64,000 nt of DNA from Solirubrobacter pauli (GCF_003633755.1 NZ_RBIL01000002.1:1922001-1986000); one strand, 5' to 3'; shown: positions 1 to 60,596, counted from the stretch's first letter. Made by a program: numbers and translations. Notes: generated by a model not told the origin, from the sequence alone.

Positions 1-873
1 CACGATCGCCAGCAGCAGCGCCGTGTCCGGCCACGGCAGCACGGCGAACGTCACGGTGCCGCCGACGAGGCCGGCGAGCAGCGGTGCCATCCGGCCGCGG
101 CGGTCGCTGAAGCGGCCCGCCAGCGGGCTGACGATGGCCTCGAAGCCCGCGGCCAACAGCCATGTCGCGCCGATCGCGGCCGACGCCGCGCCGAGCTCGT
201 CCATCCGCAGCGGGCCGAGCACGGACAGCGTGCCGAACAGCAGCCCCGGGATCGTCACGAGCAGCAGCCCGACGCGGACCTCGCCGTTGCTGAGCGCGCC
301 GAACAGGGCGCGGAAGGAGCCGTCGCCGACCGGCTGCGCACCGGGCGTCCTGGCCGTCCACACCATCAGCCCGACGCCGACGACGCCGACACCGCAGAAC
401 ACGAGCGCGTACGACGTCAGGTCCGCCGCGACGCCGAGCACGGGGCCGAACAGCGCACCCGCGATACCCGCGCCCATCGCGGTGCCGATCATCTGGCCGC
501 GCTGCTCCTTCGGCGCCGCGCCGGCGATCCAGCCCATCGCACCGGCCCACGAGGCCGCGCCGCCGACGCCCTGCACGAAGCGGGCGGCGTCGAGCAGCAC
601 GATCGAGTCCGCGAAGGCGAAGACGACGCTCGCGCCGGTCATCAGCGCGAGGCCGACCAGGACGGTCGGCTTCACGCCCACCCGCGCGGCCATGTAGCCG
701 CCCGGCAGGCCACCGACGAACGTGCCGATCGGGTACGCGGCGGCCAGCACGCCCGCGCCGGTCTTCGACAGCCCGTACTCCTCCGTCAGGTCGGGGAGCA
801 GCGGGGTGATGGCCGCGTAGAACGACGTGTCCACGAGGACGACGATCGAAGCGAGGAGGAGCAGGGCACGCAT
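1..873 (-). CDS. MFS transporter, N-terminal 291 residues (cut by window edge)
   Basis: Reading the minus strand from an ATG at 873-871 gives an uninterrupted 291-codon frame that runs off the left edge. It begins MRALLLLASIVVLVDTSFY and continues as alternating hydrophobic segments and short loops. The inter-helix 2-3 loop reads GGLPGGYMAARVGVKP, the typical MFS G-x-x-x-D/G-R region, and a second such loop (GRFSDRRGRMAP) opens the second half. About nine membrane segments are visible; a full MFS protein has about 400 residues, so roughly 110 are missing. The family exports drugs or metabolites by proton antiport; substrate unknown. A TAGAGT hexamer at 890-885 and a weak GGAG before the ATG suggest its own promoter rather than readthrough from pcrA. 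Confidence 0.85.
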   Translation of the reverse strand, partial: MRALLLLASIVVLVDTSFYAAITPLLPDLTEEYGLSKTGAGVLAAAYPIGTFVGGLPGGYMAARVGVKPTVLVGLALMTGASVVFAFADSIVLLDAARFVQGVGGAASWAGAMGWIAGAAPKEQRGQMIGTAMGAGIAGALFGPVLGVAADLTSYALVFCGVGVVGVGLMVWTARTPGAQPVGDGSFRALFGALSNGEVRVGLLLVTIPGLLFGTLSVLGPLRMDELGAASAAIGATWLLAAGFEAIVSPLAGRFSDRRGRMAPLLAGLVGGTVTFAVLPWPDTALLLAIV

Positions 874-49335: not shown

Positions 49336-50520
49336 TCAGCGGTCGAGACCGGGCGGTGGCTCGTCCCAGCGCTCTCCGCTCGGGGCGGCGGGAGGCGGCT
49401 CGGGCGCGGGCGTCGCCGGCTCCTGCCGGCGCAGCGTCCACACCACGACGAGCGTCATCGCGGCCAGCGCGAGCAGCAGGGCCGTGATGAGCGCGCCGAG
49501 CGACGTCGTGGGCGCGGCGGCAGCGGGCAGGTTGGTCTGCGTGACGCCGTCCACGCCGCCCGCCCCGGGCGTGCGCTCGGCGTCCACGTCGCCCGTCCGC
49601 CGCGGCTTGCGCGCTGCTCCGCGGTCGCCGTCCCGGCCGCCGCCGGCGCTCGGCCGGATCGCGCTCGCGACCGGCTCGGCGTCGGCCCGCGCGGTCGGCG
49701 GCGCCACCGCGGCGACGCACCCGCCGCGCTGCGCCAGCGCCCGCAGCTTCCGCAGCCCGGCCCGCTCGATCCGTGCGACCTTGCGGACGCTGACGTCGAG
49801 CCGGCGGGCGACGCTCGCCCGCGTCCGGGCCGGCTGGCGGCCGACGCCTGCGCGGAGCGTGAGGACGCGGCGCTGCTCGGCCGGGAGGGCGTCGAGGCAG
49901 CCGGTCGCGCGCGTGACGGTCTGGACGAGCCGCCGGTCGCGGCGCTGCGCGGCGCTCAGCCGTGTGAGGTCGACGCCCGCCGGCACCGACGGCCCGCGGG
50001 TGCTGCCTGAGCACGTGCCGGGAGTGGAGCAGCGGCGCTTCGCCGGCTCGCCACCCGCGCGGGAGCCGCTTCCGCCGCCCGCAGCAGAACCGGAGGAGCC
50101 GGAGCCGCCGCCACCGCCCGTGGCGGAGCCGCCGCCGGACCCGGAACCGCCGCTGGAGCCGGACTCGCCGCTCGAGCCGGATCCGCCGCCCGTCGTCGAG
50201 CCGCCGCCCGCGCTCGTCCCGCCGCCACCACCGCCGCCAGAGCTCGAAGGCGGCGCACCCTGCGGTGCGTTGGGCGTGGGCACGGGTGCCTGCACCGTCG
50301 GGACCGGCACCTGCACCGTCGGCACGGGCACCGGCACCGTGGGGACCGGCACCTGCACGGTCGGCACGGGCACCGGCACCTGCACCGTCGGCACCGGTAC
50401 CTGCACGGTGGGCACGGGCACCTTCGGGAGGTTCTTCGTGGGGTCGGGCAGCTGCGCGAAGGCGGGCGCCGTGATCACCACGGTCAAGACTCCGGCGCCG
50501 ATCAGGCTTCGCGTTCTCAC
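49336..50520 (-). CDS. Signal-peptide protein with sigma-70 region-4-like HTH and C-terminal membrane anchor
   Basis: 394 residues in five parts. Residues 1-22 are a signal peptide (LIGAGVLTVVITAPAFAQ). Residues 34-82 are tandem VPVPTVQ repeats. Residues 92-158 are Gly/Ser-rich. Residues 205-265 resemble sigma-70 region 4: CLDALPAEQRRVLTLRAGVG, then RTRASVARRLDVSVRKVARI with RAGLRKLRAL as the last helix. After a charged linker, 341-363 form a membrane helix (LGALITALLLALAAMTLVVV) with a short proline-rich tail after WTLRRQ. Cysteines lie at 164, 170, 208 and 268. If the signal peptide works, the HTH would be outside the membrane, which is unexpected for DNA binding. GTG start at 50520, 53 nt after the c-di-GMP gene stop. 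Confidence 0.8.
   Translation of the reverse strand: MRTRSLIGAGVLTVVITAPAFAQLPDPTKNLPKVPVPTVQVPVPTVQVPVPVPTVQVPVPTVPVPVPTVQVPVPTVQAPVPTPNAPQGAPPSSSGGGGGGGTSAGGGSTTGGGSGSSGESGSSGGSGSGGGSATGGGGGSGSSGSAAGGGSGSRAGGEPAKRRCSTPGTCSGSTRGPSVPAGVDLTRLSAAQRRDRRLVQTVTRATGCLDALPAEQRRVLTLRAGVGRQPARTRASVARRLDVSVRKVARIERAGLRKLRALAQRGGCVAAVAPPTARADAEPVASAIRPSAGGGRDGDRGAARKPRRTGDVDAERTPGAGGVDGVTQTNLPAAAAPTTSLGALITALLLALAAMTLVVVWTLRRQEPATPAPEPPPAAPSGERWDEPPPGLDR
50275..50421 (-). repeat. tandem in-frame repeats encoding VPVPTVQ units
   Basis: Units of about 18-24 bp built from the ACCGTCGGCACGGGC and ACCTGCACC type (plus strand) repeat about seven times, encoding residues 34-82 of the sigma-4-like protein. The unit lengths (PVPTVQ, PVPVPTVQ) vary, as expected from slippage. 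Confidence 0.8.
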
Positions 50521-50573: not shown

Positions 50574-53500
50574 TCAGGTCTGCTCGATGATCCCCCGGGC
50601 GAGTCGCGTAAACAGCCGCCGGGCACCCGCGACCTCCTTGGGCCCGCTGTCCCGGCGCTGCAGCACCTCGACCACGAGCGCGCCGAAGCGCTCGACCACG
50701 AGGAAGCGCTCGAGCAGGGTCGAGCCGCCGAGCTCCGCGCGGGCGGAGAGCCGCTGCGTCGCCGCCTCGGCGACGTCCCAGTCGGCGGCGTCGCACGCCG
50801 CGGCGACGCGCTGGGCCCACTCGCTGAGCTCCGCGACCCCCGTCTCACGCGCGAACCAGCCGTGGCGGCCGGTCTCGTACAGGCCGGCGGCGACCGACTG
50901 CAGGCGGTCCGGCTGCATCCGCAGCAGCTCGGCGACCACCGGCAGCGGCGCGGTCGGGGTGCCGACCTCGCGCAGCTGCGTCCGCGGGCGCCACGCAGGC
51001 CCCGCGCTGAGCCGGTGCAGCTCCGCGACAGGGAAGCGCCGGTGCCCGCCGGGCGTGCGCACGACGGCGATCCGCCCGGTGTCGGCCCACCGGCGGATCG
51101 TGCTCGGGGAGACGCCGAGGACGTCGGTCGCCTCGCCGAGGGCGACGGTCGGCTCGGCCGCCTCGGCCACCGGCGCCTCGAGCGACCAGGCGACGCGGTC
51201 GGGCGCGAGCCCCGCACGCAGCAGCGCCTCGACCTCGGTGGCCGGCGCGGGCCGGGCGACGCCGAAGCCCTGCACCGTGTCGCAGTCCATGCTGGCGATC
51301 CACGACGCCTGCTCGGGCGTCTCCACGCCCTCGGCGATCACGGTCACGTCGAGCGCCGTCGCCATCGAGACGATCGCCCGCAGGATGTGGCGGTCGCTCT
51401 CGGCATCCGCGATCCCGGCGATGAACGACCGGTCGACCTTCAGCCCGTCCAGCGGGAAGCGCTTGACGTAGTTCAGCGACGAGTACCCCGTCCCGAAGTC
51501 GTCGAGCAGCAGCCGCACGCCGAGCGCCTTCAGCCGCTGCAGGTGCGCGAGCGGCGAGCCCGCGTCCTCCATCAGCACCGTCTCGGTCAGCTCGAGCGCC
51601 AGCCGGTCGGGCTCGAGCCCGCTCTGCTGCAGCGCGTCGCCGATCTCCTCTACGAGGCCCGGCGCCGCGATCTGCCGCCCGGAGACGTTCACGGACACCC
51701 AGACGCGCGGGAGCGACGGATCGGCGTCCCAGCGCTTGAGCTGCCGGCACGCCTCGCGGATCACCCAGCGCCCGAGCGCGAGGATCAGCCCCGAGGACTC
51801 CGCGGCCGGGATGAACTCGCCCGGCGGGACGAGCCCGCGCTCCGGATGCTGCCAGCGCACCAGCGCCTCGAGCCCGATGGTCTGCCGCTCATGCAGCGAG
51901 ACGAGCGGCTGGTAGTGCAGCACCAGCTCATCGTTCTCCAGGGCCCGGCGCAGGTCGTGCTCGAGCCGGATCCGCTCGGCGACGCGCCGTCGCATCGTGC
52001 GGTCGAACAGCTCGTAGGTCGTCCCGGGCTGGTCCTGCGCGCGCTGCAACGCGGTCTCCGCGTCGCGCATCAGCGAGTCCGCGCTGCTCGACACCCAGTC
52101 GCCGAGCGCGACACCGATCGACACCGCGGGCTGCAGCACGTGCTCGCCGACCACCACGGGGGCGTCGAACGCGCCGATCACGCGACGCACGATCTCGATC
52201 GTGCCGCGCTCGCCGGAGATGTCCTCGCAGACGATGCCGAACTCGTCGCCGCCGAGCCGCGCGAGCGTGTCGCCGGCCCGCAGCGCGCCCTCCAGGCGGC
52301 GGGCGAACGACGCCAGCAGCTCATCGCCGACCTCGTAGCCGAACGTGTCGTTGATGTCGCGGAAGCCGTCGACGTCCAGCGTGAGCACGGCGACGGACTC
52401 GCCCTGCCGCCCCGCGCGGGCGATCGCGTGCGTGACGCGGTCGGCGAACTGTTCGCGGCCGGGCAGGGCGGCGAGCTCGGGCGGCTGCGACGGCCGCTCG
52501 CGCCGGTCGGCGCCCGAGTTCGAGACGAGGTGCGCCGCGGTCTCGACCACGCGCTCCTCCCCCGCCGTGAACGAACGGGTCTCGTAGCTGGCGGCCGCGA
52601 GCCAGCGGCGCGGCCCCGGCCCGAGGCCGAGCGGTGCCACGATCGCGCCGCGCACACCCGCCCCGCGCCACACGGACGGGAGCCGGCCGCCCTCGAGCAG
52701 CCGCGCGGCGCCCGGCAGCTCGTCCGCGACCGGCATCGCGAGCGGCACCGAGCCGTGGGCCGCCACCGTGGCCGTCGTGCCGTCGGGCCGGCGCTCGAGC
52801 ACCATCGCCGCGTCGACCGCCAGCGCGCTGCCGATGCCCGCGGCGGTGGTCCGCATCAGGTGCGCGTCGGGCGTCCCTTCCAGCGCGAGCCGCCCGAGCG
52901 CGGCGAGCATCTCCTGCGCCCGCACCTCGCGCGCGAGCGGGTGATGCGCACGGCGCGGCTCCTCGACGTCGACGATCTGGCACAGCCCGTAGCGCGAGAC
53001 ACCCGCGGCGTCACGGGCGAGCGAGAGGACGACGTCGCAGGCCACGGGCTCGTCGCCGGCCGCCAGCAGCCGGAGCCGGCGGCGGCTGAACTCGACTTCA
53101 CCGGCGTGCAGGCGCCGCACCGCGTCCTCGGCGGCGGGAAGGTCGTCCGGATGGAGGAAGCTGCGGGCCCCGTCACGCGCCAGCAGCGCGTGCGGCGAGG
53201 CACCCAGCACCTCGGCCAGGCGCTCGTTGAGGTCCACGACGCGCGGCCGCACCGGGTCCAGGGTGAAGATCGCGATGCCGGCCGACGAGTAGCGGAACGC
53301 GGTCGCCAGCCGTCCGTCGCCGAGCAGCTCGAGGCGCCCGGCGCGCACGGACGCCTCCAGGCGCTCGTGCATCTCCCACGCGTCGCGCTCGCGCACGAGC
53401 GGCTCGGTCAGCGCGTCCACCAGCGCCAGCACCGCCGCGCGGTCGACGTCGGTCAGCGGCGGCTCGCCCGCGTGCCGGCCGACCACCACGACGCCCGCGA

Positions 53501-53909
53501 TCCGCGCCGCTCCCGGCCGGCGGACGGGCACGCCGAACAGCGAGTGCAGGCCGAAGTGCAGCGTGTGCGGGCCGGCGGGCGGGCCGATCCAGCTCGACAG
53601 CTCCTCGGGCTTGCCGGTCCGGTCGAGCGTCTCGCCGCGGCGGAACGCCTCGAGCAGCGTCGGGCCGGGCCAGCCGGAGTCGTGGCCGACGAACTCCGCC
53701 TGGTACGCGGCGATCTCCGGCTGCACGGCCGCCGCCGCCATCGGCACCACCGCGCCGCGCAGCGCCGACTTGAGGTAGATGACGCACGCGCACCCGTGCG
53801 TGCGCGCGAACAGCTCGGCGACGTCCTGCAATCCGCTTCGGCCCGCGGCGCGGCCCTCCGCGATCAACCGAGCAGCGGCGTGGGTGACGTCAATGGCCTG
53901 GCTGGACAT
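50574..53909 (-). CDS. GAF-PAS-GAF-GGDEF-EAL protein with C-terminal BldC/MerR-like DNA-binding domain
   Basis: 1111 residues, no membrane helix. GAF-like domain (about 20-170), PAS (about 200-315, FRYSSAGIAIFTLDP), second GAF (about 335-465). The GGDEF domain (480-635) has intact RLGGDEF (551-557) and an RxxD inhibitory site (R544, D547). The EAL domain (645-900) has EAL 681-683, N741, E773, DDFGTG (803-808), K824 and E860, so phosphodiesterase activity is predicted. Residues 920-968 match BldC-type MerR domains: EATDVLGVSPSTIRRWADTG, then VVRTPGGHRRFPVAEL. A helical domain of about 120 residues ends the protein. TAGGGT (53927-53922) precedes the ATG by 12 nt. It lies upstream of the sigma-4-like gene on the same strand. 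Confidence 0.92.
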   Translation of the reverse strand: MSSQAIDVTHAAARLIAEGRAAGRSGLQDVAELFARTHGCACVIYLKSALRGAVVPMAAAAVQPEIAAYQAEFVGHDSGWPGPTLLEAFRRGETLDRTGKPEELSSWIGPPAGPHTLHFGLHSLFGVPVRRPGAARIAGVVVVGRHAGEPPLTDVDRAAVLALVDALTEPLVRERDAWEMHERLEASVRAGRLELLGDGRLATAFRYSSAGIAIFTLDPVRPRVVDLNERLAEVLGASPHALLARDGARSFLHPDDLPAAEDAVRRLHAGEVEFSRRRLRLLAAGDEPVACDVVLSLARDAAGVSRYGLCQIVDVEEPRRAHHPLAREVRAQEMLAALGRLALEGTPDAHLMRTTAAGIGSALAVDAAMVLERRPDGTTATVAAHGSVPLAMPVADELPGAARLLEGGRLPSVWRGAGVRGAIVAPLGLGPGPRRWLAAASYETRSFTAGEERVVETAAHLVSNSGADRRERPSQPPELAALPGREQFADRVTHAIARAGRQGESVAVLTLDVDGFRDINDTFGYEVGDELLASFARRLEGALRAGDTLARLGGDEFGIVCEDISGERGTIEIVRRVIGAFDAPVVVGEHVLQPAVSIGVALGDWVSSSADSLMRDAETALQRAQDQPGTTYELFDRTMRRRVAERIRLEHDLRRALENDELVLHYQPLVSLHERQTIGLEALVRWQHPERGLVPPGEFIPAAESSGLILALGRWVIREACRQLKRWDADPSLPRVWVSVNVSGRQIAAPGLVEEIGDALQQSGLEPDRLALELTETVLMEDAGSPLAHLQRLKALGVRLLLDDFGTGYSSLNYVKRFPLDGLKVDRSFIAGIADAESDRHILRAIVSMATALDVTVIAEGVETPEQASWIASMDCDTVQGFGVARPAPATEVEALLRAGLAPDRVAWSLEAPVAEAAEPTVALGEATDVLGVSPSTIRRWADTGRIAVVRTPGGHRRFPVAELHRLSAGPAWRPRTQLREVGTPTAPLPVVAELLRMQPDRLQSVAAGLYETGRHGWFARETGVAELSEWAQRVAAACDAADWDVAEAATQRLSARAELGGSTLLERFLVVERFGALVVEVLQRRDSGPKEVAGARRLFTRLARGIIEQT

Positions 53910-53990
53910 AGAGCGGCGGGGACCCTAGCCGTCCAGAGACCGATCCGCGCCACTGCATTGGATCCTGCTCAGCAGTGAGAACCCTGAATC

Positions 53991-54012
53991 GCGGTGCATC
54001 GGGATGCACCGC
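53991..54012 (-). terminator. hairpin after argD
   Basis: GCGGTGCAT (53991-53999) pairs perfectly with ATGCACCGC (54004-54012) around a 4-nt loop, 10 nt after the argD stop. It separates the arginine genes from the c-di-GMP gene. No T-run on the minus strand. Confidence 0.6.
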
Positions 54013-54022
54013 TTTCCAGGTG

Positions 54023-55138
54023 TCAGATTTCGAGCATTTTGAGGCGATCGACGGCGTCGTCGATCTCCTCGGGCGACACGATCAGCGGCGGCAGGAACCG
54101 CAATGTGGTCGCTCCGGTGGCGTTGATGATCAGGCGCTGCTCGGTCAGCGCGCGGGCGGCGAGCTTCGGCGCTTCGGTGGTGATCTCGGCCGCCACCATC
54201 AGCCCGCGACCGCGCACCGAGGCGACGTACGGCAGCTCGCGCAGCTTCTCCACGAGCCGCTCACCGCTCTCGCGCACGCGCGCGAGGAACGCCTCGTCGT
54301 CGATCACGTCGAGCGCCACGTTCGCCGCGGCACTCACCACGGGCCCGCCGGCGAACGTGGACCCGTGGTCGCCGGGCGCGAACACCGACTGCAGCTTCGG
54401 GCCGATCACGAGCGCGCCGATCGGCAACCCACCGCCGAGGCCCTTGGCCAGCGTCATCGCGTCCGGCTCGACGCCGAGCTGCTCGTACGCCCACAGCGAG
54501 CCGGTCCGCCCCATGCCGGTCTGGACCTCGTCGAACACGAGCGCCGCGCCGACCGCGTCGCAGGCCGCGCGGATGCCCGCGAGCAGCTCCGGCGACATCA
54601 CGTTCACGCCCGACTCGCCCTGGATCGGCTCGATCAGGACGGCGGCGGTGTCGGCGTCCACGGCGGCGGCGATCTCCGTCGCCTCGATCGCCCGGAACCC
54701 GGGGACGAGCGGCGCGAACGGCGCCTGCTTGGCCTCCTGCGGCGTGGCGCTCAAGGCGCCGTAGGTGCGGCCGTGGAACGCGTTGAGCGCGACGATCACG
54801 TCGCCGCGCGGGCGGTGCTTGCGCACGAGCTTGATCGCGGCCTCGTTGGCCTCGGCGCCGCTGTTGCAGAAGAACACGCTCTCGCCGAACGAGCGCGCCG
54901 CGAGCCGCTCCGCCAGGCGCACGTTCGGCTCGGTGTAGAAGAGGTTCGAGACGTGCATGAGCCGGCCGACCTGCTCCTGGACGGCCGCGACGACCTGCGG
55001 GTGGCAGTGGCCGAGGTTGTTGACCGCGATCCCGGACAGGAAGTCCAGGTAGCGCTCACCGCCGGAGTCCGTCAGCCAGGCGCCCTGCCCGCTGACGAAC
55101 TCGACGGGGTAGCGCGCGTAGGTGTTCGCCAGGCTCAC
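54023..55138 (-). CDS. argD: Acetylornithine aminotransferase
   Basis: 371 residues of class III PLP aminotransferase. LTDSGGERYLDFLSGIAVNNLGH, FFCNSGAEANEAAIKL, AFHGRTYGALSATPQ, ALVFDEVQTGMGRTG (PLP aspartate) and TLAKGLGGGLPIGA (PLP lysine) are all present. It converts N-acetylglutamate semialdehyde to N-acetylornithine. GTG at 55138 overlaps the argB stop (GTGA) and gives the usual N-terminus SLANTYARYPVEFV; the longer frame upstream runs through argB. It is the last gene of argCJBD. Confidence 0.94.
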   Translation of the reverse strand: MSLANTYARYPVEFVSGQGAWLTDSGGERYLDFLSGIAVNNLGHCHPQVVAAVQEQVGRLMHVSNLFYTEPNVRLAERLAARSFGESVFFCNSGAEANEAAIKLVRKHRPRGDVIVALNAFHGRTYGALSATPQEAKQAPFAPLVPGFRAIEATEIAAAVDADTAAVLIEPIQGESGVNVMSPELLAGIRAACDAVGAALVFDEVQTGMGRTGSLWAYEQLGVEPDAMTLAKGLGGGLPIGALVIGPKLQSVFAPGDHGSTFAGGPVVSAAANVALDVIDDEAFLARVRESGERLVEKLRELPYVASVRGRGLMVAAEITTEAPKLAARALTEQRLIINATGATTLRFLPPLIVSPEEIDDAVDRLKMLEI

Positions 55139-55983
55139 GTCGCCGGCCTCACTTTCGTCCCGATGCCGGCGTCCGTGAACAGCTCGAGCAGCAGCGAGTG
55201 CGGCAGCCGCCCGTCGATGATGTGCGCGTAGGTGACGCCACCGTGGATCGCCTCGACGCAGGCCTGCAGCTTCGGGCGCATTCCGCCCTGCATGTGCTCG
55301 AGCGCGGCCTCGACCTCGTCGGCCCCGGCCTCGGAGATGACGCTGTCGGGGTCGGCGGGGTCGCGCAGCCACCCGGCCACGTCCGTGAGGAACATGACCT
55401 TGTAGGCGCCGGTGGCGCGGGCGATCGCGCCGGCGGCCTCGTCGGCGTTGACGTTGTGCGAGCGGCCGTCGCGGTCGGCGCCGACCGAGGCGATGACGGG
55501 GATGTAGTCCTCGGCGATGTGGTTGATGACGCCGATGTCGACGCGGTCGATCTTGCCGACGAAGCCGATGTCCTCGCCGCCGGGGCCGGTGGTCGTGGAC
55601 ACGCGGAACAGCTGGCCGTCGTCGCCGCTCAGCCCGACCGCCGGCTGCCCGTGGCGGTTGATGCGCGCGACGATGTCCTTGTTGACCTTGCCGATCAGCA
55701 CCATCTTCGCGATCTCGACCGTGTCGGCGTCGCTGACGCGCAGCCCGCCGACGAACTCCACCGGCATGTTCAGGCGGTTCATGTAGGCCGTGATGTCCGG
55801 CCCGCCGCCGTGGACGATGATCGGGTTCAGCCCGACGTACTTGAGGATCACGACGTCGCGCGCGAAGTCCTCGCGCAGCGCCGGGTCGTTCATCGCCGCG
55901 CCGCCGTACTTGATGACGACGGTCTTGCCGTGGAACTCCCGGATGTACGGGAGCGCCTCGAGGAGTGTCCCGACATCCCTCAT
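55135..55983 (-). CDS. argB: Acetylglutamate kinase
   Basis: 282 residues. GKTVVIKYGGAAM, NPIIVHGGGPDI, VGGLRVSDADTVEIAKMVL, SVGADRDGRSHNVNADEAAG and VMFLTDVAGWL are the expected amino-acid-kinase motifs. It phosphorylates N-acetylglutamate and in many bacteria is the arginine-feedback step; the N-terminal segment before GKTVVIKYGG is only about 19 residues, so the arginine-sensitive N-terminal helix is short or incomplete. ATG at 55983 overlaps argJ by 4 nt. Confidence 0.95.
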   Translation of the reverse strand: MRDVGTLLEALPYIREFHGKTVVIKYGGAAMNDPALREDFARDVVILKYVGLNPIIVHGGGPDITAYMNRLNMPVEFVGGLRVSDADTVEIAKMVLIGKVNKDIVARINRHGQPAVGLSGDDGQLFRVSTTTGPGGEDIGFVGKIDRVDIGVINHIAEDYIPVIASVGADRDGRSHNVNADEAAGAIARATGAYKVMFLTDVAGWLRDPADPDSVISEAGADEVEAALEHMQGGMRPKLQACVEAIHGGVTYAHIIDGRLPHSLLLELFTDAGIGTKVRPAT

Positions 55984-57203
55984 GTCGTGTAGTCCGCGTT
56001 GATCGTCACGTACTCGTGCGAGAGGTCGGAGAAGAAGACCTCGGTCTCGGCTCCGCTGCCCGGCAGGACGACGTCGTACTCGACCTCGTCCCCGCTGACG
56101 GCCGCGTTGAGCGCGTCCTGGTCGAACTTGATCGCCATCCCCGCCGCGCACACCTGCACGGACTCGATGAAGACGTCGACCGCGAGCGGCGACGTGTCCG
56201 TCAGCGCGCCGCCGACGGCCTGCACGATCCGGCCCCAGTTCGGGTCCCCGCCGTGCAGCGCGGCCTTCACCAGCGGCGAGTTGGCGATCGCGCGCGCCGC
56301 CCGCTCGACGACCTCGTTCGAGCCGCCGCGGACGACCACGCGGCCGATCCGCTTCGAGCCCTCGCCGTCGCGGACGATGTCCAGCGCGAGCTTGCGCAGC
56401 GCCCAGTCGAGTGCCTCGCCGAACTTCGTCGCGTCCTCGGAGTCCGCCTCGAGCGTGACGCCGGAGGCGCCGCTCGCCTGGAAGATCACCGTGTCGTTGG
56501 TGGAGAGCTGGCCGTCGACCGAGATGCGATCGAACGAGCGCTCCACGCACAGGCCGAGCAGCAGGTCGGCGAACGTCGCGTCCAGCGCGGCGTCGGTCTG
56601 CACGAAGCAGAGCATCGTCGCGAAGTTCGGGGAGATCATCCCGGCGCCCTTGGCCTGCGCCGTGAGCCGCACGGTGCCGGCCGACAGCGCGACGTCGACC
56701 TCGACCTCCTTGGCGAACTGGTCCGTGGTCTGGATCGCCTCGGAGAAGTCGCCGTGGCCGTACTCGCGCAGATCGCCGCGCGCGCGGACGATGCCGCGGA
56801 TCACGTCGCCGGCGTCGAGCTGCACGCCGATCACCCCGGTCGAGGCGACGGCGACCTGGTCCTCGCGCACACCGCCGGCCATCGCCGCGGCGCCCTGCGT
56901 GCGCGCCGCCTGCTCGAAGCCCTGGTTGCCGGTGGCCGCGTTCGCGTTGCCGGAGTTGACGATCACCACGCGGATCGCGTCCTGGCGGGCGCGCTGCTGG
57001 GTGAGCACGACCGGCGCGGCGAGGATGCCGCTGCGCGTGAAGCGGGTCGCGCTCACGCAGCCGGGCTCGGAGCAGACCAGCAGGCCCACGTCCATCCCGC
57101 CGCTCGGCTTGATCCCCGCCGCGACGCCCGCGGCCTTGAAGCCCTTCGGGAGGTCGCCGGGGTTGTCGGTCACGTGCGCGGGGCGCTCGAGCCACCTGCT
57201 CAT
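55980..57203 (-). CDS. argJ: Glutamate N-acetyltransferase / ornithine acetyltransferase ArgJ
   Basis: 407 residues. It recycles the acetyl group from N-acetylornithine to glutamate. The self-cleavage site is visible in KGAGMISPNFATMLCFVQTD, between Ala and the nucleophile Thr. ARFTRSG-like ATRFTRSGILAAPV, VIVNSGNANAATGNQG, VASTGVIGVQL and DPNWGRI are further family stretches. No argA or argE is nearby, which suits the recycling route. ATG at 57203 overlaps the argC stop by 4 nt. Confidence 0.95.
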   Translation of the reverse strand: MSRWLERPAHVTDNPGDLPKGFKAAGVAAGIKPSGGMDVGLLVCSEPGCVSATRFTRSGILAAPVVLTQQRARQDAIRVVIVNSGNANAATGNQGFEQAARTQGAAAMAGGVREDQVAVASTGVIGVQLDAGDVIRGIVRARGDLREYGHGDFSEAIQTTDQFAKEVEVDVALSAGTVRLTAQAKGAGMISPNFATMLCFVQTDAALDATFADLLLGLCVERSFDRISVDGQLSTNDTVIFQASGASGVTLEADSEDATKFGEALDWALRKLALDIVRDGEGSKRIGRVVVRGGSNEVVERAARAIANSPLVKAALHGGDPNWGRIVQAVGGALTDTSPLAVDVFIESVQVCAAGMAIKFDQDALNAAVSGDEVEYDVVLPGSGAETEVFFSDLSHEYVTINADYTT

Positions 57204-58192
57204 CTGAGACCCTCCGTCTCCGGCCGCCCGAACATCAAGTTGAGGTTCTGCACCGCCTGCGAGGCGGCGCCCTTCCACAGGTTGTCGATCGCCGCGAAGA
57301 CGATGATCCGGCCCGTGCGCGGGTCGTGGTGCCACGAGATCCGCGCGTAGTTGGTGTCACGCACGTCGATCACGCCCACCGGGCCGCGGCGCAGCTCGAC
57401 GAACGGCTCGGCGGCGTACAGGTCGTCGAACCGCTCGGCGATCTCGGCGGCGTCCACGTCGCGCGACGGCGTCACGTAGGACGTGACCAGCTCGCCCTGC
57501 GCGAGCGGCAGCAGGTACGGCGTGAACGTGACCGTGACGTCGTTGCCGAGCGCGCTCAGCTCCTGCTCGATCTCGGGCGTGTGGCGGTGGCCCTCGATCT
57601 TGTACGGGGTGACGTTCTCGTCGGCGGCGATGAAGTGCGTGCTCGGGGACGCGCCGCGGCCCGCCCCGGAGACGCCGGACTTGCCGTCGATGATCACGTC
57701 GCCGATCAGGCCGGCCCGCGCGAGCGGCGCCAGGCCGAGCAGCGCGGCGGTCGGGTAACAGCCCGGGTTGGCCACCAGGTCGGCGCCCTTGACGGCCTCG
57801 CGGTTGAGCTCCGGCAGGCCGTAGACGCCCTGGCCGAACAGCTCCGGCGCCTTGTGCTCGCCGTACCAGTCGTCGTAGGTGGTCCGGTCGCGCAGCCGGA
57901 AGTCGGCGGACAGGTCGACCACGCGTACGCCCGCCTCACGCAGCTGCGCGACGACAGGTGCAGCCGCACCGTGCGGATAGGCGACGATGGCGGCGTCCGC
58001 GGTCTGGCCGGCGTAGGTCTCCAGCTCGAGCGGCACCCGCGTCTTGGGGTGCACGTCGTCGAGCCGCTGCCCCGCCTCGGCCCGCGCGGTCACATGCGAG
58101 AGCTCGAAGAACGGGTGTCGGTAGAGGATCTGCGCGGCGATCGCGCCGGCGTAGCCGACGGCACCGAGGACGGCGACCTTGGGGTTAGCCAC
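57200..58192 (-). CDS. argC: N-acetyl-gamma-glutamyl-phosphate reductase
   Basis: About 330 residues. The Rossmann opening VAVLGAVGYAGAIAAQIL, the catalytic cysteine in VANPGCYPTAALLGLAPL, SGVSGAGRGAS and the histidine region EGHRHTPEIEQEL are present. It makes N-acetylglutamate semialdehyde. Two GTG codons are possible: 58201 has its Shine-Dalgarno sequence directly abutting, while 58192 has GGAGG 9 nt upstream and is preferred. Either way the start overlaps the end of pheT, linking arginine synthesis to the translation operon. Confidence 0.93.
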   Translation of the reverse strand: MANPKVAVLGAVGYAGAIAAQILYRHPFFELSHVTARAEAGQRLDDVHPKTRVPLELETYAGQTADAAIVAYPHGAAAPVVAQLREAGVRVVDLSADFRLRDRTTYDDWYGEHKAPELFGQGVYGLPELNREAVKGADLVANPGCYPTAALLGLAPLARAGLIGDVIIDGKSGVSGAGRGASPSTHFIAADENVTPYKIEGHRHTPEIEQELSALGNDVTVTFTPYLLPLAQGELVTSYVTPSRDVDAAEIAERFDDLYAAEPFVELRRGPVGVIDVRDTNYARISWHHDPRTGRIIVFAAIDNLWKGAASQAVQNLNLMFGRPETEGLR

Positions 58193-60596
58193 GGAGCTCA
58201 CCCTCCAGCTTGCTCGCCACCGCCTTCACGACCTTCTCTCGCTGCGGCGCGATCTCCTCGTCGGTCAGCGTGCGGTCCGTCGCGCGGAACTCCAGCCGGA
58301 CGGCCAGCGACGTGCGGCCCTCGTGCGCGTACACGTCGAAGACGCGCACGTCCCGCAGGAGCTTGCCGCCCGCGCCCTTGACGACCTCGACCAGCTCGGC
58401 CGCCGTGCGGTCGGCCGGGATCCAGAACGCGAGGTCCTGGCGGATCACCGGGAAGCTGGTCATGTCCTCGTAGAGCGGCGTCGTGACGGCGTGCGGGAGC
58501 ACCGCCGCCAGGTCGAGCTCGAAGCCCGCGACGCGCCCGAGGTCGAACTCCTCGGTGACGCCCGGGTGCAGCTCGCCCAGCCAGCCGGCGTCCTCGCCGT
58601 TCACGAGCACGCGGGCCGCGCGGCCCGGGTGCAGGAACGGGTCGCTGCCGCGCACGACCGTGAAGGGGACGCGGAGCGCGCCCAGCACGGCCTCGAGCAC
58701 GCCCTTGGCGGCGAAGAAGTCCGCGGTCGGCGGGTTGGGCTCACCCCACGACGCGGGGCGCAGCTTGCCGGTGAGCAGCGCGCCGAGGTGCATCCGCTCG
58801 TCCGGGAGCGGCGTCGAGCGCGCCTCCGCGGCGGTCGGCGTGCGGCCGTGCGGGCGGTCGAAGTAGACCGAGCCCTCCTCGAACAGCTTCACGTCCTCGG
58901 CGCCGCGCGCCGTGTTGTGGCGCACGCTGTTCAGCAGCGAGCCGAGCAGCGTCGTGCGCATCACGCTCAGGTCCTCCGAGAGCGGGTTGCGCAGCTTCAC
59001 GGCCGGCAGGTCGATCCGCAGCTTGCGCGCCAGCTCGGGCGACTGGAAGCTCCAGCCGATCGCCTCGCTGAAGCCCGCGCCGACGAGCGCGTCGGCCGCG
59101 CGGCGGCGCAGGCGCTGCTCGGGCGTGAGGCGGGCGCTCATGCCGTGGCCGGGGATCGTCGCCGGGAGCTTCTCCAGCCCCCACAGGCGCGCGACCTCCT
59201 CGATCAGGTCGACCTCGCGCGTGACGTCGTTGCGGCGGAAGGCCGGGACGGTCACGTCCAGGCCGTCGCCGGCGTCGTGGACGCCGAAGTCAAGGCGCTC
59301 GAGGATCTCGGCCTGCTCGCCGAGCGGGATCTCGGTGCCCAGCAGGCGCGTGACCTTCTCGTCGCGCAGCCGGATCGTCTGCGGCTCCGGGCCCGGCCCG
59401 CCGATGTCGATCGTGCCTTCCACGAGCCGGGCGCCGGTGAGCTCGAGCATCAGCTGCGTGGCGACGATCTGGCCTTCCATCGCCTGCTCGGGCGCGAGGC
59501 CCTTCTCGAAGCGGCCGCTCGCCTCGGTGCGCAGGCCGAGCTTCTGCGACGTGCGCTGCAGGGTCGGGCCGTTCCAGTTGGCCGCCTCCATCAGGACGCG
59601 GGTCGTGGTCGGCTGCACCTCGGAGCGCTGACCGCCCATGATCCCGGCGATCGAGGTCGGGCCGTCGCCGTCGTCGATCAGGTGCATGGAGCTGTCGAGC
59701 GTGCGCTCCGCGTCGTCGAGCGTGAGCATCTTCTCGCCGTCCTTCGCCCGGCGCACGACGAGCTTGCCGCCCGCGACGAGGTCGAAGTCGAACGCGTGCA
59801 GCGGCTGCCCGGTGAGCAGCATCGCGTAGTTGGTGATGTCGACGACGTTGTTGATCGGGCGCTGGCCGGCGGCCATCAGGCGCGCCTTCAGCCAGCGCGG
59901 CGACGGGCCGATCTTGACGTCCTCGAACAGGCGCGCGGTGAAGCGCGGGCAGAACTCGGGGTCCTGCACCTCGATCGTGACGCCCTCGATCGGGCCGGGC
60001 GTGCCCGGGTCCTCCGCCCACGGGGCCGGCTTCAGCGGCTGGCCGGTCGCGGCGTGGACCTCACGCGCCACGCCGTAGACGCTCAGGCAGTCCGGGCGGT
60101 TGGGCGTGATCTCGAGCTCGAGCACGTCGGTCGCGATCGGCAGGACGTCGGCGAGCGGCGTACCCGGCACGAGGTCCTCGTCGAGGACCATGATCCCCGC
60201 GTGGTCGGAGCCGATCGACACCTCGTCCTCGGCCAGGATCATGCCGTTGGACGGCACGCCGCGGAGCTTGGCCTTCTTGAGCTTGGTGCCGTCGGGCATG
60301 ACCGAGCCCGGCAGCGCGACGCCGACGGTCTGGCCCGCGGCGACGTTCGGGGCGCCGCAGACGATCGTGGCCACGTCGCCCTCGCCGATCGCGACCTGGC
60401 AGACGCTCAGCCGGTCGGCGTCCGGGTGCTGCTCGCGCTCTAGGACGCGGCCGACGACGAAGTTCTCCAGGGCGGACACGCCGTGCGTGTGCACGCGGTC
60501 GACCTCGGTGCCGGTCATCGCGAGGCGGCTGGCCAGCTTCGAGGCCTCCATGCCGGGGTCGACGTAGTCCGTCAACCAGAACAGGGGCAGCCTCAT
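58185..60596 (-). CDS. pheT: Phenylalanyl-tRNA synthetase beta subunit
   Basis: 803 residues, as expected. The N-terminal tRNA-binding (EMAP-like) domain contains VGRVLEREQHPDADRLSVCQV and IVCGAPNVAAGQTV. LEITPNRPDCLSVYGVARE opens the B1 domain; the B3/B4 editing region (GQRPINNVVDITNYAML), the B5 and catalytic-like core, and the C-terminal ferredoxin-fold anticodon domain (FPVIRQDLAFWIP) follow. With PheS it forms the alpha2-beta2 enzyme. ATG at 60596 overlaps the pheS stop by 4 nt; the upstream open frame is within pheS. Confidence 0.96.
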   Translation of the reverse strand: MRLPLFWLTDYVDPGMEASKLASRLAMTGTEVDRVHTHGVSALENFVVGRVLEREQHPDADRLSVCQVAIGEGDVATIVCGAPNVAAGQTVGVALPGSVMPDGTKLKKAKLRGVPSNGMILAEDEVSIGSDHAGIMVLDEDLVPGTPLADVLPIATDVLELEITPNRPDCLSVYGVAREVHAATGQPLKPAPWAEDPGTPGPIEGVTIEVQDPEFCPRFTARLFEDVKIGPSPRWLKARLMAAGQRPINNVVDITNYAMLLTGQPLHAFDFDLVAGGKLVVRRAKDGEKMLTLDDAERTLDSSMHLIDDGDGPTSIAGIMGGQRSEVQPTTTRVLMEAANWNGPTLQRTSQKLGLRTEASGRFEKGLAPEQAMEGQIVATQLMLELTGARLVEGTIDIGGPGPEPQTIRLRDEKVTRLLGTEIPLGEQAEILERLDFGVHDAGDGLDVTVPAFRRNDVTREVDLIEEVARLWGLEKLPATIPGHGMSARLTPEQRLRRRAADALVGAGFSEAIGWSFQSPELARKLRIDLPAVKLRNPLSEDLSVMRTTLLGSLLNSVRHNTARGAEDVKLFEEGSVYFDRPHGRTPTAAEARSTPLPDERMHLGALLTGKLRPASWGEPNPPTADFFAAKGVLEAVLGALRVPFTVVRGSDPFLHPGRAARVLVNGEDAGWLGELHPGVTEEFDLGRVAGFELDLAAVLPHAVTTPLYEDMTSFPVIRQDLAFWIPADRTAAELVEVVKGAGGKLLRDVRVFDVYAHEGRTSLAVRLEFRATDRTLTDEEIAPQREKVVKAVASKLEGELRG

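What the first reader, a model, noticed from the sequence alone, without database searches (positions are those of the whole stretch)
50574..53909. c-di-GMP turnover enzyme fused to a BldC/MerR-type DNA-binding domain
One soluble polypeptide carries GAF-PAS-GAF sensing, an intact GGDEF with RxxD inhibitory site, an EAL domain with all visible catalytic residues, and then a helix-turn-helix with the RTPGGHRRF wing of BldC proteins plus an unassigned helical C-terminus. GGDEF-EAL proteins usually end at EAL and act through separate effectors such as BldD or RsiG. This architecture suggests a one-component regulator whose DNA binding depends on its own c-di-GMP occupancy or turnover.
Basis: partly seen in the sequence, partly recalled or inferred. 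Interest (0 to 1): 0.82.

Follow-up and report, generated by a model that had tools for sequence, protein, structure and literature searches.

The report
c-di-GMP phosphodiesterase with DNA-binding tail
A soil bacterium related to Solirubrobacter carries an enzyme that degrades the signalling molecule c-di-GMP and also ends in a DNA-binding domain, and because relatives attach the same tail to an unrelated c-di-GMP-degrading enzyme, this looks like a recurring, untested design in which a signal-degrading enzyme is itself a gene switch.

Summary
Window 50574-53909 (-) is one open frame of 1111 aa: GAF-PAS-GAF (weak matches), GGDEF, EAL, a BldC/MerR-type winged HTH, then about 125 aa of helices. 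All EAL catalytic residues are present. The GGDEF core and I-site are intact, but its flanking motifs have decayed, so 'intact GGDEF' is an over-call; phosphodiesterase is the likely activity. HTH and tail are no artefact: a full-length orthologue is 88% identical and both are under purifying selection. The tail matches no Pfam family. It recurs at about 30 loci in 19 genomes of one bacterial family; 29 of 30 carry a c-di-GMP phosphodiesterase. The same HTH-tail unit follows EAL in some proteins and the unrelated HD-GYP fold in others, including a second gene in this genome. Two unrelated enzymes that share only their substrate, in front of one DNA-binding output, is the best argument that c-di-GMP gates it. 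A sister bacterial family has HTH-tail proteins without c-di-GMP domains. The tail's model best resembles the cap of CarH/LitR photoreceptors (suggestive only). Best explanation: a DNA-binding 'trigger phosphodiesterase', working like E. coli PdeL but assembled from different parts. DNA binding and c-di-GMP dependence are not shown.

The parts
50574..53909 (-). complete gene, 1111 aa: GAF-PAS-GAF-GGDEF-EAL-HTH-CT
   Evidence: open frame; orthologue L004/L066 at 88% identity overall
53415..53822 (-). GAF-like domain, residues 30-165
   Evidence: Pfam GAF 22.6 bits, cut-off 22.4
53043..53237 (-). PAS-like domain, residues 225-289
   Evidence: Pfam PAS_3 23.0 bits, below cut-off 25.6
52518..52862 (-). 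second GAF-like domain, residues 350-464
   Evidence: Pfam GAF_3 21.3 bits, below cut-off 27
52029..52475 (-). GGDEF domain, residues 479-627; GGDEF 553-557 kept, flanking DxLTGLPNR and AKxxGR motifs decayed
   Evidence: Pfam 3.5e-33; alignment with relatives
52269..52280 (-). RxxD inhibitory (I-site) motif R544-A-G-D547
   Evidence: sequence
51249..51956 (-). EAL phosphodiesterase domain, residues 652-887, all catalytic residues present
   Evidence: Pfam 3.5e-79; residue table
51000..51149 (-). BldC/MerR-type winged HTH, residues 921-970, wing RTPGGHRRF
   Evidence: HTH_17 and MerR above cut-off; NCBIfam HTH_BldC 53.3 bits; similarity to BldC structures 6amk/6ama
50577..50957 (-). C-terminal helical domain (CT), residues 985-1111
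   Evidence: no Pfam match; about 30 relatives; predicted helical bundle, residues about 1017-1109
53910..54022 (-). upstream intergenic region after argD; a block at 53946-53969 (AGCAGGATCCAATGCAGTGGCGCG) and a hairpin are conserved in the orthologue; possible operator or promoter, untested
   Evidence: sequence and alignment with L004

Best explanation
The protein is most likely a DNA-binding trigger phosphodiesterase. The EAL domain binds and cleaves c-di-GMP. The GGDEF domain, with decayed flanking motifs but an intact I-site, probably serves mainly as a regulatory GTP or c-di-GMP site, and the GAF/PAS region adjusts the enzyme to an unknown cue. Binding or cleavage changes how the EAL domains pair, and that decides whether the adjacent BldC-like HTH, assisted by the helical CT domain as oligomerisation or contact surface, can sit on its operator. 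By analogy with PdeL, the likelier sign is that c-di-GMP loading weakens DNA-bound activity. Shown: the architecture, intact catalytic residues, conservation of HTH and CT, and the same HTH-CT unit behind EAL and HD-GYP. Inferred: phosphodiesterase activity, DNA binding, c-di-GMP gating and its sign.
For: (1) All EAL catalytic residues present. (2) HTH kept under purifying selection, dN/dS 0.10. Aligning the BldC DNA-contact residues from PMC5859096 (K26, R30, W31, H46, R47, R48) with the window gives S, R, W, H, R, R; the R30 equivalent is kept in all 25 HTH-bearing relatives listed and W31 in 19 of 25. (3) The HTH-CT unit occurs behind EAL in 13 loci and behind HD-GYP in 13 (11 distinct); in the HTH-CT tree the HD-GYP proteins group together (89/88) among EAL branches. 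Two unrelated folds that share c-di-GMP as ligand point to c-di-GMP as the input. (4) Some relatives keep HTH and CT while losing catalytic residues (L022, L078, L082), and 10 of 11 distinct HD-GYP members read HDxGM for HDxGK, as expected if ligand binding can matter more than turnover. (5) Precedents: PdeL, and PdeR, whose EAL domain contacts the C-terminal domain of the MerR-like regulator MlrA.
Against: No experiment bears on it. Three relatives have EAL-CT without HTH (L025, L027, L071), one has EAL-HTH without CT (L159) and one has PAS-HTH-CT without any c-di-GMP domain (L080), so neither HTH nor c-di-GMP domain is obligatory. The genome has more than 30 EAL and nearly 20 HD-GYP-type matches, and only one of each carries HTH-CT, so this could be a side branch. 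The HTH-CT unit exists without c-di-GMP domains in a sister bacterial family, so its own signal need not be c-di-GMP.
Confidence: 0.6

Rival explanations
1. Address tag: the HTH-CT only localises an ordinary phosphodiesterase to DNA or to a partner regulator, giving local c-di-GMP removal; it does not control transcription itself.
For: Relatives lacking the HTH (L025, L027, L071) or the CT (L159) exist, and the enzyme is predicted active.
Against: Members with damaged EAL sites still keep HTH and CT (L022, L078, L082), which a pure enzyme-delivery role does not explain.
Confidence: 0.17
2. GAF/PAS-driven transcription factor: the HTH-CT responds to the N-terminal sensors, and the GGDEF-EAL part is a passive relay or separate enzyme activity.
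For: L080 is PAS-HTH-CT with no phosphodiesterase domain; L021 carries PAS domains in front of GGDEF-EAL.
Against: Several short members have little or nothing in front of HD-GYP or EAL (L020, L030, L073, L078), so the phosphodiesterase part alone often precedes HTH-CT.
Confidence: 0.15
3. The HTH fold no longer binds DNA and serves, with CT, as an oligomerisation or protein-contact module.
For: The K26 equivalent of BldC is lost throughout, and W31 is replaced in one EAL subgroup.
Against: The wing GGHRR is invariant in the aligned relatives and the HTH is among the slowest-evolving parts.
Confidence: 0.08

Closest known systems
PdeL (YahA) of E. coli, trigger phosphodiesterase (PMC5052742)
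   Same: EAL phosphodiesterase and DNA-binding HTH in one polypeptide; proposed to sense c-di-GMP while degrading it
   Different: PdeL has an N-terminal LuxR-type HTH linked to EAL; here a BldC/MerR-type HTH is C-terminal and followed by a helical domain, with GAF-PAS-GAF-GGDEF in front, and the same output also follows HD-GYP
PdeR-MlrA and BluF-BluR of E. coli (PMC5052742, PMC3509220)
   Same: EAL protein controls a MerR-like regulator; [quoted passage not shown]
   Different: two separate proteins in E. coli, one polypeptide here; homology of the C-terminal domains was not tested
BldC of Streptomyces (PMC5859096; 6ama, 6amk)
   Same: closest HTH by sequence; shared R30, W31, H46, R47, R48 equivalents
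   Different: BldC is a 68-residue stand-alone protein, not fused to c-di-GMP domains; the window HTH misses the BldC model cut-off
CarH/LitR cobalamin photoreceptors (5c8e, 8c73, 3whp)
   Same: order MerR-type HTH then helical bundle; best natural structural matches of the CT model (Z 8.6-9.8)
   Different: no cobalamin-binding Rossmann domain, no Wx9EH motif, HTH unlike CarH, no convincing sequence relationship
Stand-alone HTH-helical proteins of family f5 in the same class (G007, G013, G025)
   Same: BldC-like HTH followed by a domain homologous to CT (hhalign probability 85%, score 39.5 against shuffle maximum 15.1)
   Different: no c-di-GMP domain

Membership tests
DNA-binding trigger phosphodiesterase (PdeL type) | catalytically competent EAL domain | tested here: inconclusive
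   all catalytic residues present; activity not measured
DNA-binding trigger phosphodiesterase (PdeL type) | DNA-binding-type domain in the same polypeptide | tested here: met
   HTH_17 and MerR above Pfam cut-off; binding itself not measured
DNA-binding trigger phosphodiesterase (PdeL type) | target control depends on c-di-GMP binding or turnover | not testable with these tools
   needs expression and binding assays
BldC family | passes the curated HTH_BldC model (NF033787, 77 bits) | tested here: not met
   53.3 bits
BldC family | head-to-tail oligomers on DNA direct repeats | not testable with these tools
   defined structurally in PMC5859096
MerR-like winged HTH | Pfam MerR or HTH_17 above gathering score | tested here: met
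   36.9 and 38 bits against 28.2 and 27
CarH/LitR | cobalamin-binding Rossmann domain after the cap | tested here: not met
   the protein ends after CT and no B12-binding match was found
CarH/LitR | Wx9EH motif in the cap | tested here: not met
   present in caps of the same bacterial family, absent from the CT alignment
CarH/LitR | four-helix cap fold | tested here: inconclusive
   Z 8.6-9.8 over 75-79 residues for models of mixed confidence; helical bundles reach such values by chance
Active diguanylate cyclase | GGDEF signature and flanking consensus motifs complete | tested here: not met
   GGDEF and I-site kept, flanking motifs LAALPGR and AQ..PGT depart from consensus; activity not measured

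The most novel reading that the evidence does not exclude
A family of transcription regulators in Solirubrobacter relatives in which one DNA-binding output, a BldC-like HTH plus a helical domain shared with stand-alone regulators, has been placed under direct control of two unrelated c-di-GMP phosphodiesterase folds, EAL and HD-GYP, so that the cell reads c-di-GMP in the act of destroying it. An HD-GYP member would be, as far as I know, the first HD-GYP trigger enzyme that binds DNA directly.
Probability: 0.45. Interest if true: 0.77.

Novelty: new variant of a known kind. Interest (0 to 1): 0.62.

Why it matters
In E. coli, phosphodiesterases that double as c-di-GMP effectors are represented by two examples (PMC5052742), one of which binds DNA. 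Here is a conserved set of candidate proteins in a different phylum with a different HTH, and with the same output behind two enzyme folds. That gives a natural experiment: if EAL and HD-GYP versions both switch DNA binding with c-di-GMP, the trigger principle is general and not a peculiarity of PdeL. It also offers single-polypeptide regulators for studying how c-di-GMP is read in Actinobacteria outside the BldD and RsiG routes.

Tried and rejected
Frameshift or assembly join between EAL and HTH: rejected, the same fusion is in many genomes. CT as a known Pfam domain: no match even at E 10. CT by profile against PDB sequences: only designed repeats, nanobodies and the like, uninformative. CT as a sequence relative of cobalamin caps from the same bacterial family: hhalign probability 2.6%, score 18.6, slightly above 200 column shuffles (maximum 17.0), suggestive at most. 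HTH as CarH-derived: 12.9 bits for CarH against 53.3 for BldC. Hits L026, L028 and L029 of the first class survey: judged false positives, their frames are unrelated. Long-frame HTH hits other than L159 (L160-L178): no GGDEF, EAL or HD domain found in them. Downstream gene as a c-di-GMP-linked sigma factor: it is a low-complexity, apparently exported protein with only a sigma region 4-like stretch. Consensus promoter and terminator scan: nothing. Literature searches for an EAL or HD-GYP fusion to a MerR/BldC HTH found none in the held library, which lacks most subscription journals.

Full report
WHAT IS THERE. The frame 50574..53909 (-) encodes 1111 aa without interruption. Pfam finds GAF 30-165 (barely over cut-off), PAS_3 225-289 and GAF_3 350-464 (both under cut-off), GGDEF 479-627 (3.5e-33), EAL 652-887 (3.5e-79) and HTH_17/MerR 925-966 (2e-9 and 3.3e-9, over cut-off). 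After the HTH come about 140 residues with no Pfam match.

CATALYTIC RESIDUES. E681, N741, E773, D803, D804, K824, E860 and Q880 of EAL are all present. The GGDEF loop (553-557) and the I-site R544-x-x-D547 are present, but the opening DxLTGLPNR motif reads LAALPGR and the closing AK..GR motif reads AQ..PGT, while paralogue L075 keeps both. I expect a phosphodiesterase with a regulatory GGDEF; that is inference from sequence.

NOT AN ARTEFACT. In Solirubrobacter phytolaccae (L004, the same locus as L066) the whole protein is conserved at 88% identity, downstream of argC, argJ and argD as in the window. dN/dS is 0.08 for GGDEF, 0.21 for EAL, 0.10 for HTH and 0.28 for the C-terminal domain (CT), against 0.40 and 0.70 for the two short linkers. 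HTH and CT are selected domains, not read-through.

A SHARED OUTPUT MODULE. A search of the window's own genome with residues 920-1111 found a second gene with the same HTH and CT (42% identity), fused to an HD-GYP-type domain. With a profile of CT (A1), 21 of 146 genomes of the bacterial family gave matches, 19 of them strong, at about 30 loci. In evenly drawn samples of the class (349 genomes) and phylum (396 genomes), matches occurred only in that family. Architectures: GGDEF-EAL-HTH-CT 13, HD-GYP-HTH-CT 13 (11 distinct), EAL-CT without HTH 3, PAS-HTH-CT 1 (L080). So 29 of 30 carry a c-di-GMP phosphodiesterase domain. A further protein, L159, is GAF-PAS-GAF-GGDEF-EAL-HTH and stops right after the HTH. 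In a tree of HTH-CT, HD-GYP proteins fall together (89/88) among EAL branches, consistent with at least one exchange of enzyme domain in front of a conserved output. In this genome, 34 EAL and 19 HD_5 matches were found; one of each carries HTH-CT.

WHERE HTH-CT COMES FROM. A search with the HTH alone shows BldC-like HTHs to be common in the phylum, but the long-frame hits examined, apart from L159, lack GGDEF, EAL and HD domains. In family f5 of the same class, short HTH proteins carry a C-terminal domain that aligns with CT (hhalign probability 85%, score 39.5, 122 columns; 200 column shuffles reach at most 15.1), and 38 of 199 sampled class genomes, all f5, have it. The simplest history is a stand-alone HTH-helical regulator that was joined to c-di-GMP enzymes in the window's family; the direction is inferred.

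WHAT CT LOOKS LIKE. In both, the best natural matches are the four-helix caps of CarH/LitR (Z 8.6-9.8, 75-79 residues, mostly 2.1-2.8 A, 15-17% identity), followed by AppA SCHIC, AerR and photocobilins among others. The tool warns that helical bundles reach such Z values without kinship. Sequence comparison gives only a hint, the Wx9EH motif found in the caps of this bacterial family is absent, and there is no Rossmann domain. I treat cap-likeness as a lead and reject membership in CarH/LitR.

THE HTH. BldC is the best match in the PDB and NCBIfam, though under the family cut-off. Of the BldC residues reported to contact DNA (PMC5859096), R30, W31, H46, R47 and R48 have identical counterparts here and K26 is serine. 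Across 25 listed relatives the R30 counterpart is always arginine, and the W31 counterpart is tryptophan in 19.

HOW IT MOST LIKELY WORKS. PdeL shows that an EAL enzyme with an HTH can read c-di-GMP while destroying it, and PdeR that an EAL domain can hold a MerR-like regulator through its C-terminal domain (PMC5052742, PMC3509220). The window protein combines both ideas in one chain. The strongest argument for c-di-GMP gating is that EAL and HD-GYP, which share substrate but not fold, both occupy the position in front of HTH-CT. Members with damaged EAL sites (L022, L078, L082) and HD-GYP members with HDxGM for HDxGK (10 of 11) suggest that binding can outlive turnover. DNA binding, phosphodiesterase activity, gating and its sign all remain untested.

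UPSTREAM REGION. Between argD and the start codon, a hairpin and a block of about 24 bases (AGCAGGATCCAATGCAGTGGCGCG) are conserved between window and orthologue while neighbouring bases differ. It could be promoter or operator; nothing shows which.

LIMITS. The paper library is partial, so absence of a published MerR/BldC-EAL fusion is weak evidence of novelty.

Noticed in passing
window 49336-50520 (-): Gene 53 bp downstream: signal-peptide-like start, Pro/Val and Gly/Ser repeats, a sigma-70 region 4-like stretch (Pfam 1.5e-7) and a C-terminal hydrophobic helix; odd to find a sigma-like HTH in an apparently exported or membrane protein.
   Followed up: partly
window 54023-58201 (-): Arginine biosynthesis genes (argC, argJ, argB-like kinase, argD) lie directly upstream; argC, argJ and argD are confirmed upstream of the orthologue in S. 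phytolaccae, so the placement is conserved at least within the genus.
   Followed up: partly
L030 upstream of the HD-GYP-HTH-CT gene; also L064: AT-rich stretch with repeated CAATT elements conserved between two species, between a TetR-type gene and the HD-GYP paralogue; loosely resembles the AATT-containing BldC repeats but could equally be the TetR operator.
   Followed up: partly
L159 (G232:C32:26500-34500): A relative with GAF-PAS-GAF-GGDEF-EAL-HTH whose frame stops immediately after the HTH, with no CT downstream.
   Followed up: yes
L025, L027, L071 (genus g19): EAL-CT proteins with no HTH between the two domains, so CT can act without the HTH.
   Followed up: partly
L167 and L169 (family f5): Stand-alone HTH-helical regulators occur as adjacent tandem pairs, perhaps acting as hetero-oligomers.
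   Followed up: no
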